Below are positions 8,926 to 17,140 of a DNA stretch of 64,000 nucleotides, one piece after another. Below the pieces are notes generated by a model. The model saw only the letters and a program-made list of their open reading frames with translations, did no database searches and had not been told where the DNA came from. The DNA is taken from the NCBI RefSeq assembly GCF_030389965.1, contig NZ_CP128399.1:2160934-2224933 (forward strand). Reading direction: 5' to 3'. Each line of letters opens with the position of its first letter. The first letter of the stretch is position 1. A program made the translations under genes and the position numbers. The stretch is from Candidatus Chlorohelix allophototropha. Lineage in GTDB: Bacteria > Chloroflexota > Chloroflexia > Chloroheliales > Chloroheliaceae.

Positions 8926-10029
8926 ATGAAAGTACAACGTTTAAGCCTGTCCGGGCCTGACCACCAAGTGGCGGGTGTAAGCTGGCTGCTTCTGGATGAC
9001 AATTTTCTACCAGTCATTCCAGTGCAAGAATTTCTGTCATACCTGCATAACCTGGAGCGCTCTCCCAATACTATTCGATCCTATGCCCATCACCTCAAAC
9101 TTTACTGGCAATATCTGACCGAATCCCAGCTGGACTGGAGTAAAGTCGGTTTAGATGAGTTGGCCGCCTTCGTTGCTTGGTTGCGCAACCCCTTGCCGGG
9201 CATTATTTCTCTTCAGCCGCGCCTGGCTAAGCGAAGTGAGTCAACTATCAATACCATAGTAGCGGTAGTCTCCGCTTTCTATGACTATCAGCAACGGCGA
9301 GGTTTTGCGACGGATTTGGCACTTTATCGTTCACAATCGTTTCCCCAACGCCGTTACAAAGATTTTCTCTACCATATTTCCAAATCCAAACCAGTGACCA
9401 CCAGGCTCATCAAACTCAAGGTTCCTAAAAGGCTGCCTAAAACTCTGACTAATGCACAAGTTCAGCAATTGCTAGAGGCCTGCCACAATCTGCGGGATCG
9501 CTATCTGGTCAGCCTGCTTTACCAGACGGGAATGCGGGTGGGACAGGCTCTCGGTCTGCGACATTCAGATATTCACTCCTGGGATAACCTTATTCGGATC
9601 GTGACACGTCAAAATAACCTTAATCAGGCGCGGGCTAAAACCCTCCAGCCCTATTCCATCCACGTCTCACCTGAGCTTATGTCGCTTTATACCCGCTATT
9701 TGCTGGATGAATTTGGCGATACTGACAGCGACTATGTTTTCGTCAATTTGTGGGAAGGGGCAATAGGGCAACCCCTGCACTATGAGAGTGTAATCGATTT
9801 GTTTCACCGCTTAAGTAAGCAAACCGGTTTGGCAGTCCATCCCCATATGCTCAGGCATACGCATGCTACTGAGCTTTTCCAAAATGGCTGGGATGCAGCC
9901 CTTGTCCAAAAACGCCTGGGGCATGCTCAGGTACAAACCACCCTCAATACCTATGTTCATCTGACTGAAGCTGACTTAAAGAAAGCCTATCAGATCTATC
10001 TGGAAAGGAGAGCCCCACGTGACGAATAA
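8926..10029 (+). CDS. Tyrosine recombinase, TnpA-like
   Basis: A protein of 367 residues. The N-terminal SAM-like core-binding domain (about 30-140) includes LERSPNTIRSYAHHLKLYWQ. The C-terminal catalytic domain has LYQTGMRVGQALGLRHSDI (catalytic Arg), HPHMLRHTHATELF (His and Arg), LGHAQVQTTLNTYVHL (His and nucleophilic Tyr). All catalytic residues are present. It is first of three genes and overlaps the second by 11 bases (10019-10029). Length and order match TnpA of Tn554. It should cut and rejoin transposon ends together with the second recombinase. Confidence 0.9.
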   Translation: MKVQRLSLSGPDHQVAGVSWLLLDDNFLPVIPVQEFLSYLHNLERSPNTIRSYAHHLKLYWQYLTESQLDWSKVGLDELAAFVAWLRNPLPGIISLQPRLAKRSESTINTIVAVVSAFYDYQQRRGFATDLALYRSQSFPQRRYKDFLYHISKSKPVTTRLIKLKVPKRLPKTLTNAQVQQLLEACHNLRDRYLVSLLYQTGMRVGQALGLRHSDIHSWDNLIRIVTRQNNLNQARAKTLQPYSIHVSPELMSLYTRYLLDEFGDTDSDYVFVNLWEGAIGQPLHYESVIDLFHRLSKQTGLAVHPHMLRHTHATELFQNGWDAALVQKRLGHAQVQTTLNTYVHLTEADLKKAYQIYLERRAPRDE

Positions 10030-11878
10030 TCTGGAAACAGCCGGGGTAAGTACCCAGCAACAGCATTTAGCCGAGCAACCTCAAGGCTGGTGGGCACAGG
10101 ACAGGTGGAAAATGGCAACTTGTCCCTTATTTGCTGGCAAGCCTGAGTTCTTAGCTGACAACCGCATAATTGAGTTTAGCTGCAAGTCTCCATTTCTCAA
10201 TATTGAGCTAAAGTACGGTTGCTGGTATAAACTTGAGAGAGGGGATTGGAACATCCAAACCTGGTCTGGACCAGCCTTGGTAGCCAGCCTGAGCGACTGG
10301 CTGAATTCCACAGCACCCAAAGCAACTTCATTGATGATCTATAACCTGGATAAATGGCTTTTTTCCTTGAGAACTTACCTTGTCAGCATGGGTCGCGCCT
10401 ATAGCCATCAGAGTGCCTATCTGGATAGCTCACAAAAGACCCGGTTCAGTCACTCCAATTCTCAACTTGTTTCAGCCTTTCGCCAAATTTATCTGGTAAT
10501 TCAAGAAGCTTATGACGACCGTCCCGAATATGAGCGAGAAATCTGGGATTTGCGGCGATTAGGGGTAACACTCAACCCCGCTATTTCCAATTACAAGCTT
10601 AATTTCACTAAAATATCCCAACCCTGGTTAGTGCAAGCGGCTAAGCATTTTATGCGCTATAGCCTAGCCAGTTGTACCGCTGGTACCTGTAAAAGTCGGC
10701 TGATAGCGCTAACAATCTTTTCTAGTTTTCTAAAGGAGCAATATCCTTTACTAGAATCGGTCGATTTAAACCGAAGTGTGATAGAAGCTTACTTGAGTTA
10801 CCTGAACAAAAGCGGCATGATGGCTTCCACCTGGTTCCATCACCTGGTTCACTTGCGAATTTTCCTAGAATTATGCAGTCGTGAAGATTGGGCTAAAGTC
10901 CCTGGCAAACGTTTAATTTACAATGAAGATTTTCCGCACCTGCCCAAGTTACAACCACGCTTCATTCCGGCTGATGTAATGGAGCAACTTAACTGTCACT
11001 TGAATACTTTCCCAGAACCTCTCCGACAGATGGTTTTTATGTTACGAGAGTGCGGGATGCGGCTGAGTGAAATGTTAACCCTCTCTCTGGATTGCCTATT
11101 GCAAGATGCCAGCGGCGATTGGTTTCTGTGTTATTACCAGCATAAGATGAAAAAGGAGCATACTATTCCGTTTTCTCAGGAAGTCGCCGCTGTTATTCAA
11201 CAGCAACAAGCTACTGTCAAAAGCAAGTGGGGCAATACTATCGCTATCCTATTTCCGGGTCCTAAAGGACAGCCCTTCAAACAAAGGGGGTTCTTTAATG
11301 CTTTGAACCGGGCTTGCTGCGCCAGGGATATTCGTGATAGTAGTGGGCGGCTTTACCGTTTCCACGCGCACCAATTTCGGCATACCCTGGCTACCCAAAT
11401 GATCAATAATGGAGTACCACAGCATATTGTGCAACGTTTTCTGGGACATGAGTCACCCGAGATGACAATGCGCTATGCTCATATTCACGACCAAACCCTT
11501 AAAGAAGCATATATTCGTTTTCGAAGTCAGGTTATTGACATTACAGGGCAGGTAGTAACAGCGACGCAGGTCAATTCAGGTGAAATGCAATGGTTCAAGA
11601 AAAACATCCTGGCTCAAACACTACCCAATGGCGATTGTGCTCTGCCGGTAGTTGCCGGACCGTGCCCACACGCTAATGCTTGCCTGACTTGTACTCATTT
11701 TCGCACGGATGCCAGTTTTCTGGAACGTCATAAAGTTCAAAGGCGAGAAACCGAGTGTTTGTTGCTGATCGCTCGTAATAACAATTGGCAACGCCAGGTC
11801 GAGATGAATGAGCGGGTCAAGGAAAATCTGGAGCGGATAATTGAGGCGTTGGAAAAAGAGGAGAAAAAAGATGCATAA
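10019..11878 (+). CDS. Tyrosine recombinase, TnpB-like
   Basis: A protein of 619 residues starting with GTG inside the end of tnpA. The N-terminal half is the large core-binding part of Tn554 TnpB. The catalytic domain starts near residue 330: MLRECGMRLSEMLTLSLDCL (Arg), FHAHQFRHTLATQM (His and Arg), FLGHESPEMTMRYAHIH (His and Tyr). After it comes a cysteine-rich tail, CPHANACLTCTHFRTDASFL, likely a small Zn site, then a helical end with many charged residues. It overlaps the third gene by 8 bases. The frame is intact. Confidence 0.9.
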   Translation: MTNNLETAGVSTQQQHLAEQPQGWWAQDRWKMATCPLFAGKPEFLADNRIIEFSCKSPFLNIELKYGCWYKLERGDWNIQTWSGPALVASLSDWLNSTAPKATSLMIYNLDKWLFSLRTYLVSMGRAYSHQSAYLDSSQKTRFSHSNSQLVSAFRQIYLVIQEAYDDRPEYEREIWDLRRLGVTLNPAISNYKLNFTKISQPWLVQAAKHFMRYSLASCTAGTCKSRLIALTIFSSFLKEQYPLLESVDLNRSVIEAYLSYLNKSGMMASTWFHHLVHLRIFLELCSREDWAKVPGKRLIYNEDFPHLPKLQPRFIPADVMEQLNCHLNTFPEPLRQMVFMLRECGMRLSEMLTLSLDCLLQDASGDWFLCYYQHKMKKEHTIPFSQEVAAVIQQQQATVKSKWGNTIAILFPGPKGQPFKQRGFFNALNRACCARDIRDSSGRLYRFHAHQFRHTLATQMINNGVPQHIVQRFLGHESPEMTMRYAHIHDQTLKEAYIRFRSQVIDITGQVVTATQVNSGEMQWFKKNILAQTLPNGDCALPVVAGPCPHANACLTCTHFRTDASFLERHKVQRRETECLLLIARNNNWQRQVEMNERVKENLERIIEALEKEEKKDA

Positions 11879-12269
11879 ACGCAACGTGGAAGGTCTCCGG
11901 CTGCAGGCACAAGCCCGGCATCAAGCTGCTTTGCAACGCGCCGAACAAGGAATTGCTAGGTTGTTACGAGAGGAACAACCCGTAAATTTTATGTCAGTAA
12001 GTAAAGTAGCAGCGGTTTCTACTGCCTGGCTCTACCGGCAAACTGCCATACGAGAACGGATAGAATATTTAAGGAACCAATGCAAAACGGATAATATGCA
12101 GCCAGAGAAGCTGGGCGTTAAGACAGGTGCTTCAGAAGATTCGAGGAAGGCTATACTGGTTACCTTGCGTCAGCACATTAAACAGCTTGAGGCAGAAAAC
12201 CGAGAACTCAAACGACAAATTGAAGTAGCTTACGGACAGATCTATAAGCAGCCCAGTCCTAAACAATAA
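11871..12269 (+). CDS. TnpC-like protein (DUF6262)
   Basis: A protein of 132 residues. The ATG at 11871 is preferred because GAGGAG lies 8 bases upstream and its overlap with tnpB fits the operon. The N-terminus (VEGLRLQAQARHQAALQRAE) is helical. The middle (INFMSVSKVAAVSTAWLYRQ, reading VNFMSVSKVAA) resembles a helix-turn-helix as in DUF6262. The C-terminus, around KQLEAENRELKRQIEVAYGQ, is a predicted coiled coil. In Tn554 the third gene aids frequency and orientation of transposition; the same job is likely here. Confidence 0.8.
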   Translation: MHKRNVEGLRLQAQARHQAALQRAEQGIARLLREEQPVNFMSVSKVAAVSTAWLYRQTAIRERIEYLRNQCKTDNMQPEKLGVKTGASEDSRKAILVTLRQHIKQLEAENRELKRQIEVAYGQIYKQPSPKQ

Positions 12270-12477: not shown

Positions 12478-13246
12478 GATATTGGTGGAGGCAGTGGCGC
12501 GTTCCGACTACAACGCCGAGAGTGCCCTCTTGACGATGAGTGAAGTGCTAAAACAACACGGTCTACCTTGAACAAATCACCTTTGACCGCGATCCTCGCT
12601 GGGTGGGTAGTCATAGCACCGTGATTTCCCTTCCGCCTTCGTCAAATACTGGACTTGTCTGGGCATCCTCGTCACGATTTGTCCACCCCATCGTCCTGAT
12701 ATGAATGGCTTTGTGGAGCGCTACAATGGCTCTTTTGGCAGGGAGTGTCTGGCAGCACTCCAGCCTCAAACCCTAGCACAAGTGCGAGAAGTAACGGCCC
12801 AGTACCGGCAACATTACAACTATGAGAGACCGCATCAAGGGCTGAGTTGTGGCAACAAGCCTCCACGAGTAGCCTTTGCTGAGTTGCCAGTCCTGAAAAG
12901 TCTGCCCTTGATAGTGAACCCAGATGGGTGGATAAAAAGCTGTCACGGCTTGAGATACCTACGCAAAGCCGATCATAAAGGGACAGTTCGAGTAGATAAA
13001 CACCACTACTATGTAGGAAAAGAACTGGCGGGGAAGTATGTGCAGGCGGAAGTGGACGGCGTACAAGGACAATTGGTGTTTTGGAATGAACAGCGTGAAG
13101 TGAAACGGGTAGCAATCAAGGGCTTGATCGGACAAGAGTTAGGTTATGAGGAATTTCTGAAGTTACGGTTGAAGGAAGCAAAGAGTGAGCGGCGGCTAGC
13201 GGGAATGAGAACCAGAGCGAGGCAGGGCATCGCCTTCGATAGCTAG
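12473..13246 (+). pseudogene. Integrase-core (IS481-like) transposase, 3' part with compensating frameshifts
   Basis: It continues the gene begun at 8253. SILVEAVARSDYNAESALL is in frame. An extra T near 12570 causes a stop, and a lost base near 12622 restores the frame, so QITFDRDPRWVGSHS is read in another frame. From 12701 the rest is open: MNGFVERYNGSFGRECL, YNYERPHQGLSCGNKPPR, then a Mu-C-like C-terminal domain ending at 13246. The second catalytic Asp is in the shifted part (TFDRDPRW) and the Glu in NGFVERYN. With the insertion plus two frameshifts, the transposase is inactive. Confidence 0.8.
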
Positions 13247-13962: not shown

Positions 13963-14823
13963 TTATTTGATCAGTGCTTTTATATTTCCATTGCTCACTC
14001 TTAGGTCTAGGTTAAGTACATTTCCACCTTTAGCATATTCAGCGTTTGTATAAATTGTTTGATTGCCTATACGGTTAAATCCTGGTGCGCTGAAATTACC
14101 GGTCGTGATTGTCGCAGTTACTTTAATGCCCAATCCGCTTGGCACAACAAAGGTAATATCACCATTGCCCACTCCGGCAACAGCGTAGTAAGTTGCATTT
14201 AGTCCTGTTGAGAAATCAAGCGTAATCTTACCACTACCTACCTTGATATTCATCGCGGGAGAGTTGGTATTAGCCAACCCTTTCATGCTGATAGAACCGG
14301 TTCCCACTTCAACCGAAAGCTGTTTTAGCGAGGTCTGTGGCTGTTCTAGGTTCAAATCCACACTACCATTTAGTACTTTCGCGTAAAAATTGCTTAGTTG
14401 TGCATTGCCGGTATTAGCAATTACACTCCCGTTGCCGATGGCTGCGCTGAAATCCAACCCTTCCTTACCACCGAATTGCAAATTCCAGCGGTTTACCAAG
14501 CCGTTGGAAGGCAACTTACTACCGCTAATATTTTGGTGGATTTTAAGGCTTGGTGAGCCAATTCCATCGGTTTGTGGCTTTAATTGGGGGATATTATAGT
14601 CAAGTTGCCCCATTAAGCCGGTATCACTGTTACCCTGCAATTGTATTTCGCCGCCTGCAATATCCAATGAAATAGCCTTTGAGTCATTGGATATTATGGA
14701 TTCGGTCTGTAGCGTTCCGATAGAAAGTTCCTGTGTGGTATCGTCACCACATGCGACAAATATCCAGCTTGAAAACAAGACCAGTATTACTAAAAAACCT
14801 ATTCTTTTGTTCACTGCCACCAT
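13963..14823 (-). CDS. Lipoprotein with repetitive beta-strand domain (toastrack/DUF4097-like)
   Basis: A protein of 286 residues. The N-terminus has a signal peptide with lipobox FVAC and Cys25 as the likely acylated residue, so it is anchored to the outer face of the membrane. The rest is a run of short strands ending in Gly/Asn turns (IGNGSVIANTG, VLNGSVDLNL, GTGSISMKG, GSGKITLDF, GVGNGDITFVVP, VSNGNIKAL). This single-stranded right-handed beta pattern is typical of the toastrack/DUF4097 type of envelope proteins linked to envelope-stress sensing. Family assignment is by pattern only. It is followed upstream by the PIMT-like gene on the same strand, with a gap of 37 bases, so both may be co-transcribed. 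Confidence 0.6.
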   Translation of the reverse strand: MVAVNKRIGFLVILVLFSSWIFVACGDDTTQELSIGTLQTESIISNDSKAISLDIAGGEIQLQGNSDTGLMGQLDYNIPQLKPQTDGIGSPSLKIHQNISGSKLPSNGLVNRWNLQFGGKEGLDFSAAIGNGSVIANTGNAQLSNFYAKVLNGSVDLNLEQPQTSLKQLSVEVGTGSISMKGLANTNSPAMNIKVGSGKITLDFSTGLNATYYAVAGVGNGDITFVVPSGLGIKVTATITTGNFSAPGFNRIGNQTIYTNAEYAKGGNVLNLDLRVSNGNIKALIK

Positions 14824-14860: not shown

Positions 14861-16327
14861 TTAAAAATCCGCATCGCTCTCACCAAGAGGTAAAAGCAGG
14901 TCAAAATACTGCCTTTGTACTACGAAACCCGGCGCTGGAGGATTACTACCGGATGGAAAGGCTATTGGTCGGTAATCGCTCGATTGAGGGCAGCCCAATT
15001 CTATCCATAAATCCCATACTTGTTCGACCAGTAAAAGAGCTTGGTTGGAAGTAGAGTCTGATATACCGATTCGCCAACCTAATAGCGATTCTGCATTTAT
15101 TATAATCGCAAGATCTAAAGCTTGCTCATCTTCGGTTGGCACGACCAATACCATACCTCGCCAGTCAAACCGGATACTATTCCGATCGTTAGGGTTGCGG
15201 GCTTCCTGAGTAGAGACCTCATTACCAACCAATAGGCTACAAATTCGTTTTTCATGGGCAGCTGCCAGCAAAATGTTAAAACCTTGCGCCATCCCGATTG
15301 CGGTACGCTGTTCATTCTCTAATTGTGCCCATTTCTGTCTGTTATTGCCCCAATTTTTGTACCAATCCTGAAAAATATCGCTGGCAGGATCAAGCAATTC
15401 TCTCCGTAAATATCCATTAGCTTTCTGGTGGCTGTAATTAGCCTCAAGCAAAGCGCTATATTTATCCAGCGAAGCCTCACGGGTAACATAGATTTTCCCA
15501 CCGTTTACTCGTAGATTAAGCGGCAAAATGGAGTCGAGCGGTAAACATGTGGTTACCAATTGTGAGTTTGGCTCAAACCGACGTGAAAGAGGGTGCAGCA
15601 TAGATCCGCGCATTGGCATAAAACCACCTGTGCTTGAATCAATAGCACGCAAAATACCATCGGCATCCTTCCGAAAACAGGGTATTAACCCCCCCCAAAC
15701 ATGCCGACTAATTGAAATTGGTACCAGTAGCAACCCACCTACTTTTAATTGGGAAACCCATGCCGGGCTGACTTCCCATTGTTGTACCGTAACAATAATG
15801 CGGTCGTAGGGTGCTTCTTCCTCAAATCCACCTGCGCCATCGGTATTTATTACCTTTATTTTTGAGTAAATTTCTCCTAACTCTTGTAGCTTGCGGTAGG
15901 TATTTTTAGCAAGTTCAGTATCTAGTTCGACCGTAACAACCTGACCCTGTGTTCCGACTATATACGCCATAATGGCAGCGTTATAACCCACCCCCGCCCC
16001 TATTTCCAGCACTTTCATTCCCGGTTCAAGCTGCAAAACTTCCAACATGTCCGCCATCAAATATGGCTGTGAACTGCTACTACTGGGCATACCGTCGTCT
16101 GTGTATTTCACTACTATGGCATCGTCGGTATAAACTTTTTCAAGCGTTAATTCGGGTGGCAAGAAGTGTTCCCGAGGGATGGTCAGGAATGCTGATTCGA
16201 TCAAGGGGTTTTTAAAAGCCAGACCTTGTTTGAGTAATTCTACTAACTGAGCACGTAACTCAGCCGCGTGGGAAGCCGCTAACCGGGAAATATCGCCATT
16301 ATCCGCGTCTTTCTCTTCGCGTCCCAT
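14861..16327 (-). CDS. PIMT-like (protein-L-isoaspartate O-methyltransferase family) SAM methyltransferase with C-terminal extension
   Basis: A protein of 488 residues if started at 16327 (MGREEKDAD); an ATG at 16360 would add 11. The first half is a class I SAM methyltransferase of PCMT type: a leader with IPREHFLPP, then SSSQPYLMADMLEVL, motif I VLEIGAGVGYNAAIMAYI, PYDRIIVTV and QLKVGGLLLVPI. Canonical PIMTs repair isoaspartate and have about 210 residues. This one has another 260 residues of unknown fold, as in PIMT homologues that modify peptides in RiPP clusters. A small gene lies 92 bases upstream on the same strand. The methyltransferase call is firm; the substrate is unknown. Confidence 0.8.
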   Translation of the reverse strand: MGREEKDADNGDISRLAASHAAELRAQLVELLKQGLAFKNPLIESAFLTIPREHFLPPELTLEKVYTDDAIVVKYTDDGMPSSSSSQPYLMADMLEVLQLEPGMKVLEIGAGVGYNAAIMAYIVGTQGQVVTVELDTELAKNTYRKLQELGEIYSKIKVINTDGAGGFEEEAPYDRIIVTVQQWEVSPAWVSQLKVGGLLLVPISISRHVWGGLIPCFRKDADGILRAIDSSTGGFMPMRGSMLHPLSRRFEPNSQLVTTCLPLDSILPLNLRVNGGKIYVTREASLDKYSALLEANYSHQKANGYLRRELLDPASDIFQDWYKNWGNNRQKWAQLENEQRTAIGMAQGFNILLAAAHEKRICSLLVGNEVSTQEARNPNDRNSIRFDWRGMVLVVPTEDEQALDLAIIINAESLLGWRIGISDSTSNQALLLVEQVWDLWIELGCPQSSDYRPIAFPSGSNPPAPGFVVQRQYFDLLLPLGESDADF

Positions 16328-16419
16328 AGATTTACTCCGGTTCTGGAGGAAAAACATCAAGTTGCAGGAGTAAATTGTCCTCCTGCAACCGTGATTAGAG
16401 ATAGGCAGAGAATAAATCT

Positions 16420-16767
16420 CTAGCTCTGTAATTTCTCGCGCACGCCCTCAATCGGTATCTCGAAATCTATTGCTGCGCGTACAATGCGGCTAATAATTAA
16501 TTGCTGTTGTTCATAGGTGTAGCGATTTCGATTTTCCGCTTCACTAAAATAGGTAATCGCGTCGAAAATGTTACCTTCGGTATCAAGCGGGAATGTAAAG
16601 AAGTTCTGATAGTGCATAACTTCGTTCATTTTCAGTCCGGCTGAAAACGGATGGTTCTCATTTGTTTGCGCCGGGTTAGCATTCGCTTTTACCACACTAG
16701 GGTTAAGCCCGCCCGGTACATAAGTGACAGGCGCCAGGGCTTTTTCTTCATTAGGATTCTGGCTCAT
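16420..16767 (-). CDS. Small conserved-looking protein upstream of the PIMT-like gene
   Basis: A protein of 115 residues. The N-terminal half is low in structure and rich in Asn, Ala and Pro (GLNPSVVKANANPAQTNENH). The C-terminal half (FPLDTEGNIFDAITYFSEAE, then YTYEQQQLIISRIVRAA) resembles DUF6582-type sequences, in which a strand is followed by helices. No signal peptide or Cys is present. It lies upstream of the PIMT-like methyltransferase in the same direction, so it may be its substrate or partner. A peptide-precursor role is possible but unproven; a simple stand-alone helical protein is equally possible. Confidence 0.6.
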   Translation of the reverse strand: MSQNPNEEKALAPVTYVPGGLNPSVVKANANPAQTNENHPFSAGLKMNEVMHYQNFFTFPLDTEGNIFDAITYFSEAENRNRYTYEQQQLIISRIVRAAIDFEIPIEGVREKLQS

Positions 16768-17140
16768 AACTCTCCTGATAGGCTTTAGAATTTGGAACAG
16801 TACGCTGAAATCATTATAACCTTTACCTTATTATGGGTCAATGTGACCGGAATAAAGAGACCATTGGCGATAACAAATAGCGTACAAACTTACACCCCGT
16901 TTACGCACCATCTGTCTAGCCCCCAGTTCGGCTGGATTGTTGTGTGTGGGGTCGTGGGCAAGTAGTCCGCAATCGCTTGGCTGTCCTTGATTCATTTGCG
17001 TTTGTTCTCGGCGAAAGCCCCTTCTTGTCCTAAAAGCTCGTCCACTTGACTTTGACCTAAATTTTACGCAGATCCGTGCTATAGGTTATAATAAGCGAAC
17101 TTGTCTTAAGTATACTTTTTTGACATAGCAAAAAACAGTT
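16768..17140. other. Intergenic region between divergent genes
   Basis: About 370 bases separating the minus-strand small gene from the plus-strand kinase. It must hold both promoters. A TATAAT at about 17086-17091 is 50 bases before the kinase start, without a clear -35 box. Nothing else recognised. Confidence 0.4.

What the first reader, a model, noticed from the sequence alone, without database searches (positions are those of the whole stretch)
14861..16767. PIMT-like methyltransferase with extension plus small upstream gene
PIMT homologues with extra C-terminal domains are used in several peptide-modification systems, including two-gene aspartimide-forming cassettes. Here a 115-residue protein precedes such an enzyme on the same strand. 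Its C-terminal half might instead be a known small domain.
Basis: inference. Interest (0 to 1): 0.5.

Follow-up and report, generated by a model that had tools for sequence, protein, structure and literature searches.

The report
Aspartyl methyltransferase paired with small protein
A bacterium that harvests light in an unusual way carries, side by side, an enzyme of the kind that chemically remodels aspartate in peptides and a small protein conserved next to it in its close relatives, which is probably the enzyme's dedicated partner or target.

Summary
In detail: on the minus strand a 115-residue gene (16420-16767) lies directly upstream of a PIMT-like gene (14861-16360; likely start 16327). 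The genome fits 'Ca. Chlorohelix allophototropha'. The enzyme is not a plain short repair PIMT: tree, Ser-rich active-site loop, C-terminal extension and WXXXGXP motif place it in the extended 'PAMT' clade that forms aspartimide/isoaspartate in RiPPs. The small gene is in all 5 genomes held of this family, and next to the enzyme in the 4 whose assembly covers the place; across three different gene neighbourhoods little else is shared. Outside the family the pairing was not found (0 of 32 enzyme loci). The small protein is not a standard imiditide/pamtide precursor: its C-terminal half is a small helical, remotely DUF6582-like domain, better conserved than the enzyme, with a variable Pro/Ala-rich N-terminal tail. 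Its only three Asp are invariant; D62-T63, in a predicted loop, is the best candidate site. Most likely a PAMT with a dedicated protein substrate; rivals are an adaptor, or a repair enzyme (the only PIMT-scale protein found in these genomes) merely co-transcribed with its neighbour. New variant of a known kind; mechanism untested.

The parts
16420..16767 (-). small protein, 115 aa: short N-terminal tail (variable in length among relatives) and C-terminal, remotely DUF6582-like helical domain; Asp only at 62, 69 and 101
14861..16360 (-). PAMT-type (extended PIMT-like) SAM methyltransferase, 499 aa from TTG, 488 aa from ATG at 16327; catalytic domain roughly residues 30-250, then a C-terminal extension with the WXXXGXP motif (WIELGCP, residues 452-458)
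16813..16841 (-). sigma70-like promoter match (TTGACC-17-TATAAT, 11 of 12) 45 nt upstream of the small gene; consensus match only
   Evidence: 4 sites found in the region, 7.2 expected from shuffles
16356..16395 (-). strong hairpin (11-bp inner stem plus 4 pairs, 9-nt loop) followed by a U-rich stretch, between the two genes; possible attenuator or RNA-processing site, in this genome only (gap 59 nt to the TTG or 92 nt to the ATG here; 3, 14 and 15 nt in relatives)
   Evidence: whole 101-nt stretch z -5.07; gaps; not listed by the terminator scan, which allows loops of 3-8 nt

Best explanation
The two genes are one functional unit of the Chloroheliaceae. The downstream gene makes a PAMT, an aspartyl O-methyltransferase of the extended PIMT clade; the upstream gene makes its dedicated partner, most likely its substrate. 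The enzyme would recognise the folded C-terminal domain of the small protein through its own C-terminal extension and methylate one Asp (best candidate D62, followed by Thr, in the loop before the helix at 64); the ester would close to an aspartimide that hydrolyses largely to isoaspartate. Shown here: clade of the enzyme, conserved adjacency, likely domain type, the invariant Asp. Inferred: that the small protein is the substrate, the site, and the chemical outcome. Biological role unknown; presence in all five family genomes held suggests a lineage-wide role rather than a sporadic antibiotic-type RiPP.
For: Tree of 44: window enzyme with 3 family members (100/99) and L010 (100/98), inside a 32-row side (99/94) that also holds FxLD-lanthipeptide and lasso-cluster enzymes; 10 short PIMTs form one separate side (100/100) (contexts). 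Active-site loop SSSSSQP against QTISQP in 9 and QVTTQP in 1 of 10 short PIMTs; WXXXGXP in 24 of 34 extended sequences including the window, 0 of 10 short. FxLD model 217 bits against 131 for the canonical pimt model, both under their cut-offs. Small gene in 5 of 5 family genomes, enzyme adjacent in 4 of 4 where assembly covers the place. Of 53 ORFs in three 20-kb neighbourhoods, the only ones matching the window at E<1e-10 are the copies of the pair and one ABC-type ATPase. All three Asp of the window's small protein are invariant in 4 of 4.
Against: No direct evidence of modification. D62 also occurs at the equivalent place of a DUF6582-like protein with no PIMT-like gene found in its +-1.5 kb locus (L092), so it may be structural. 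The small protein evolves more slowly than the enzyme (64-73% against 41-45% identity). The window's loop keeps the Gln before Pro, as short PIMTs do; the 3 FxLD-lanthipeptide-type rows (L111, L131, L132) and the lasso-cluster row (L136) lack it. One family enzyme (WHQLSQP) and the nearest outsider L010 (WHALSCP) lack a perfect WXXXGXP. The enzyme is the only PIMT-scale protein found in these genomes, which fits a repair role too. Only five genomes in the family.
Confidence: 0.42

Rival explanations
1. The small protein is not modified but is a binding partner (adaptor, chaperone or regulator) that directs the PAMT-type enzyme to another target encoded elsewhere.
For: Conserved, probably folded small domain with a variable low-complexity tail; conservation exceeds that of the enzyme, as for a protein with its own binding surfaces; no hypervariable core at the C-terminus.
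Against: The RiPP systems described in the two papers read in part are enzyme plus substrate (PMC10787088, PMC13001092), although the survey also lists PAMT clusters with no substrate found; no third gene is shared by all neighbourhoods.
Confidence: 0.22
2. The enzyme is this lineage's isoaspartate repair enzyme, as the extended PIMT of Thermotoga maritima is thought to be (recalled), and the small gene is only co-transcribed with it.
For: No other PIMT-scale protein found in the five family genomes: one match of 139-156 bits in each of four (G204 has a gap there), all other matches 52 bits or less. Best solved-structure sequence match is T. maritima 1DL5. The active-site loop keeps SQP as in short PIMTs.
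Against: Clade and Ser-rich loop set it apart from short PIMTs; linkage survives three different neighbourhoods while the best matches of the flanking galE and purC lie elsewhere in the window's genome.
Confidence: 0.27
3. The pair is an ordinary two-gene imiditide (type I pamtide) cluster whose peptide is cut from the N-terminal tail of the small protein.
For: Two-gene order precursor then PAMT; Pro/Ala-rich tail of variable length in relatives.
Against: In the window protein residues 1-61 hold no Asp at all; composition G 4.3, P 7.0, D 2.6% against G 17.3, P 16.8, D 10.2% and about 45 aa for type I (PMC10787088 section 8).
Confidence: 0.06

Closest known systems
Imiditides / type I pamtides (NmaA-NmaM, SpaA-SpaM)
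   Same: Two-gene order, small gene then extended PIMT-like enzyme with WXXXGXP; conserved Asp near a conserved Pro (D62, P60)
   Different: Partner is a longer, probably folded protein, not a Gly/Pro/Asp-rich linear peptide; [quoted passage not shown]
Cysimiditides / type II pamtides (FcaA-FcaM)
   Same: The substrate there is also a folded small domain presenting an Asp
   Different: No CXXCXGXG zinc ribbon here; no Cys in the window protein
PAMT with FHA-domain neighbour (FHA-VWA clusters)
   Same: Domain protein with a Pro-rich N-terminal tail next to a PAMT
   Different: No gene besides the pair is shared by the neighbourhoods, so no conserved ten-gene cluster; FHA and VWA genes were not looked for specifically; the tail in the window protein has no Asp
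Canonical PIMT (Pcm) and extended T. maritima PIMT (1DL5)
   Same: Catalytic fold (Z 20.2-25.5 to solved PIMT-family chains; 1DL5 Z 22.4, rmsd 3.4, 206 aligned)
   Different: The catalytic loop and extension differ from short PIMTs; 1DL5 itself was compared only over the catalytic part
DUF6582 (PF20223)
   Same: C-terminal half of the small protein, profile positions 33-81
   Different: Below the gathering score; adds a conserved PGGLN...PFSAG stretch and a variable tail

Membership tests
PAMT (RiPP-type extended PIMT) | PIMT-type catalytic domain | tested here: met
   PF01135 153 bits; structural matches to PIMT-family chains Z 20.2-25.5
PAMT (RiPP-type extended PIMT) | C-terminal extension over 100 aa | tested here: met
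   about 250 residues beyond the catalytic domain
PAMT (RiPP-type extended PIMT) | extension with beta-alpha-4beta-alpha order as in 1DL5 | tested here: inconclusive
   model elements E288-293, H349-369, four strands within 373-432, H440-454 fit with an insertion, but pLDDT there is mostly below 50; the structure rows span mainly residues 26-246
PAMT (RiPP-type extended PIMT) | WXXXGXP motif | tested here: met
   WIELGCP in the window; 2 of 3 relatives have it, the third has WHQLSQP; 24 of 34 extended, 0 of 10 short
PAMT (RiPP-type extended PIMT) | falls in the extended clade, apart from short PIMTs | tested here: met
   tree of 44 rows; two extended rows, L029 and L032, fall on the short PIMTs' side, the window does not
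PAMT (RiPP-type extended PIMT) | methylates Asp of a partner | not testable with these tools
   needs enzyme assay
Imiditide / type I pamtide | about 45-aa precursor rich in Gly, Pro, Asp | tested here: not met
   115 aa, G 4.3, P 7.0, D 2.6%; criterion from PMC10787088
[quoted passage not shown]
   D62 two residues after invariant P60
Cysimiditide / type II pamtide | two CXXCXGXG motifs | tested here: not met
   no Cys in the small protein
Canonical repair PIMT | short protein with a QTISQP-type active-site loop | tested here: not met
   SSSSSQP and about 250-residue extension; the final SQP is shared
Canonical repair PIMT | repairs isoAsp in proteins | not testable with these tools
   needs enzyme assay; it is the only PIMT-scale protein found in these genomes
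DUF6582 (PF20223) | score above the gathering threshold | tested here: not met
   22.3-23.4 bits against 27.3 in 4 of 4; remote relationship suggested by hhalign E 8.4e-7 with, E 2.2e-4 without, two sequences found by the query profile itself
FxLD methyltransferase (TIGR04364) | score above cut-off 320 | tested here: not met
   217 bits, over the catalytic part only

The most novel reading that the evidence does not exclude
A third kind of pamtide-like system: a PAMT whose dedicated substrate is a folded, DUF6582-like protein, installing an aspartimide or isoaspartate in a protein domain as a fixed, lineage-wide feature of the Chloroheliaceae rather than in a secreted peptide.
Probability: 0.33. 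Interest if true: 0.65.

Novelty: new variant of a known kind. Interest (0 to 1): 0.42.

Why it matters
The published survey of 9,408 extended PIMT-like enzymes had no clue to the role of 3,653 of them (PMC10787088); a conserved partner gene is such a clue for one branch. If the partner is the substrate, isoaspartate would be a programmed modification of a protein rather than damage, and the DUF6582-like domain would gain a testable role. It would also add a post-translational system to the Chloroflexota order reported to use a type I reaction centre (PMC10972752, passages).

Tried and rejected
Rejected: paired loss of both genes in G204. The first searches found neither gene there, but contig C527 ends inside the small gene right after galE, and C508 ends in a frame that resembles the GNAT gene following the enzyme in relatives (by eye); the place of the enzyme lies in an assembly gap.

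Rejected: the Pro-rich tail as the Asp-bearing target; the window protein has no Asp in residues 1-61.

Led nowhere: the viral contig scan with the small-protein alignment (87 pattern matches, none a relative); the fold search with the small-protein model (best Z 5.7; the top rows are designed miniproteins; mean pLDDT of the model 56.8); the solved-structure sequence search for the small protein (best E 1.1); the NCBIfam and PHROGs scans of it (no family); a class-wide search of 158 genomes, which beyond the family gave only 3 weak hits, two in the DUF6582-like part and one in the N-terminal part. The genome-contig scan with the enzyme found only 6 loci because it uses two short patterns. The enzyme model has low confidence beyond about residue 240. 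The neighbour listing mis-oriented some loci; for the partner question it is replaced by the profile scan. dS was saturated in four of six small-gene pairs.

For these facts I lowered the first explanation from 0.45 to 0.42, raised repair from 0.25 to 0.27 and lowered the novel case from 0.35 to 0.33.

Full report
What is there. The window is G000:C1:2160934-2224933. The contig sizes seen, 2,961,161 and 2,453,413 bases, with five contigs and 6.09 Mb in all, match the published genome of 'Candidatus Chlorohelix allophototropha' L227-S17 (2.96 and 2.45 Mb plus a chromid and two plasmids; passages of PMC10972752). This identification is an inference from sizes, supported by three related loci titled Candidatus Chloroheliaceae bacterium L227-5C, Chloroflexi bacterium 54-19 and Chloroflexi bacterium RYN_336. 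Both genes of the finding are on the minus strand. The small gene comes first and has a good sigma70-like match 45 nt upstream (a consensus match only, and the region holds fewer such sites, 4, than its shuffles, mean 7.2). The stretch between the genes folds into a strong hairpin (z -5.07 over 101 nt, none of 200 shuffles as stable), followed by a U-rich run. The TTG start at 16360 lies in this hairpin, the ATG at 16327 after it. In the three relatives the gap is only 3, 14 and 15 nt, so the hairpin is peculiar to this genome among the four.

The enzyme. Pfam gives PCMT at 153 bits over residues 37-220. NCBIfam scores the FxLD peptide methyltransferase model (217 bits, cut-off 320) above PRK13943 (155 bits, cut-off 359), the graspetide-system model (148 bits, cut-off 380) and the canonical pimt model (131 bits, cut-off 159); none reaches its cut-off. 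In the three relatives FxLD is likewise first. The best solved-structure sequence match is T. maritima PIMT 1DL5, over the catalytic part, which Lee et al. name as, to their knowledge, the only solved member of the extended clade (PMC10787088: parts 1 and 2 of 5, section 8 and passages read). In a tree of 44 sequences the four family enzymes group together (100/99), next to L010 from another Chloroflexota family (100/98), within a 32-row side (99/94) that also holds enzymes lying in lanthipeptide and lasso-peptide clusters (contexts); ten short PIMTs form one separate side (100/100), and two extended rows, L029 and L032, attach on the short PIMTs' side. Before the tree, 8 of the 29 Chloroflexota loci outside the family (L010-L038) were never entered, and of 51 collected sequences 7 were set aside as duplicates, fragments or awkward fusions.

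The aligned active-site loop reads SSSSSQP in the window against QTISQP in 9 of 10 short PIMTs and QVTTQP in the tenth; SS[SA][ST]QP occurs in 24 of 34 extended sequences and 0 of 10 short ones. The ten extended exceptions include the three FxLD-type rows L111, L131 and L132 and the lasso-cluster row L136, which are Ser-rich but lack the Gln; in that detail the window is closer to short PIMTs than to these peptide-modifying enzymes. WXXXGXP, which Zhu and Link describe for lasso, graspetide and imiditide enzymes (PMC13001092: part 1 of 5, section 11 and passages read), occurs in 24 of 34 extended sequences, the window included (WIELGCP), and in 0 of 10 short ones; the L227-5C enzyme, L010 and the three FxLD-type rows are among the ten without it. 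The predicted C-terminal elements fit the published beta-alpha-4beta-alpha order with an insertion, but at low confidence.

The small protein. It has 115 residues in the window and 124, 170 and 200 in relatives; the difference is mainly a Pro/Ala-rich N-terminal tail. From PGGLN onward the four are highly alike: 64-73% identity to the window, against 41-45% for the enzymes. The C-terminal half is a remote DUF6582: below the Pfam threshold in 4 of 4. Profile comparison with 12 DUF6582-like proteins gives E 8.4e-7 and 91.6%; without two that the small-protein profile had itself recruited, E 2.2e-4 and 45.3%. I take the relationship as likely, not certain. The model shows helices at 64-75, 85-101 and 106-114, with block pLDDT between 60 and 82 from residue 61 on. 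The window protein has exactly three Asp, 62, 69 and 101, all invariant. D62-T63 lies in the loop before the helix at 64; the other two lie in helices. Threonine after the conserved Asp is reported for some lanthipeptide precursors (PMC13001092). Against D62 as a special site, a DUF6582-like protein in another family of the class (L092) has D at the equivalent place (YPIDSEKHV), and no PIMT-like gene was found in its +-1.5 kb locus.

Linkage. The small gene is in 5 of 5 genomes held of the family. In four the enzyme follows directly. In the fifth, G204, both genes first seemed absent; contig C527 in fact ends inside the small gene directly after galE, so the place of the enzyme is an assembly gap. 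The neighbourhoods differ: galE, a GNAT-like gene and purC in two genomes, an XRE-like gene in L227-5C (these names by eye), a PAS kinase and a toast-rack protein in the window. Of 53 ORFs in the three 20-kb neighbourhoods, those matching the window at E<1e-10 are the three copies of each gene of the pair and one ABC-type ATPase; L227-5C shares with the other two nothing but the pair at that threshold. In the window's genome the best matches of galE and purC lie on the other large contig and about 460 kb away. Outside the family, 0 of 32 extended-enzyme loci had an ORF like the small protein or like DUF6582 (29 of these have at most 1.5 kb on each side, several cut by contig ends, and they are the best hits of a 201-genome sample). 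Conversely, of 30 DUF6582 loci none had a PIMT-like gene within 1.5 kb (loci, the best of 63 genomes with a match among 301; some cut by contig ends).

Function. The published pattern for such enzymes is enzyme plus a nearby substrate, with the extension proposed to recognise it and shown to do so for imiditides (PMC13001092). Folded substrates are known in type II pamtides, and Lee et al. suggest that a domain protein with a Pro/Gly-rich tail (FHA) may be a target; they also list extended enzymes with no substrate found. The pair described here fits best as a PAMT with a dedicated folded protein substrate. The main alternative is repair: in the four genomes that cover the place the enzyme is the only match of PIMT size (139-156 bits), and every other PCMT match in the five genomes is 52 bits or less. 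That T. maritima's extended PIMT repairs isoaspartate is recalled, not read here. An adaptor role is also open.

Novelty. Searches of the held papers for imiditide/aspartimide (25 of 193 papers listed), pamtide (2 papers), DUF6582 (none) and Chlorohelix/Chloroheliales (6 papers) listed no title or abstract on this pairing. In the main texts, Chloroflex- and DUF do not occur in PMC10787088, nor Chloroflexota and DUF in PMC13001092, nor methyltransferase and isoaspart- in PMC10972752. The imiditide discovery paper is not held, and supplementary data of the survey, where the enzyme may be listed without comment, could not be read. I therefore call it a new variant of a known kind.

Noticed in passing
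window 8926-12269 (+): Two consecutive tyrosine recombinases (8926-10029 and 10019-11878, both Phage_integrase) followed by a 142-aa ORF (11841-12269), in an order that recalls Tn554-type transposons (recalled, not tested).
   Followed up: partly
window 12701-13246 (+): Integrase-core (rve_3) ORF that looks like part of an insertion sequence, about 0.7 kb from the toast-rack gene downstream of the enzyme.
   Followed up: partly
window 13963-14823 (-): Toast-rack/LiaF-like protein (weak Pfam matches below their cut-offs) with a lipoprotein-like start, 37 nt downstream of the enzyme on the same strand; possibly a third gene of the transcript in this genome, not found beside the pair in relatives.
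   Followed up: partly
window 16356-16395 (-): Strong hairpin between the two genes, with no room for it in the three relatives; could set the ratio of small protein to enzyme.
   Followed up: partly
L097 4771-7152: In an Aggregatilineales genome an extended PIMT-like enzyme follows an ORF resembling ThiF/E1 enzymes (by eye); another possible enzyme-partner setting.
   Followed up: no
L016, L019, L025, L027 upstream of the enzyme: Four genomes of one Chloroflexota family (f23) carry an amidase-like gene directly upstream of an extended PIMT-like enzyme (by eye).
   Followed up: no
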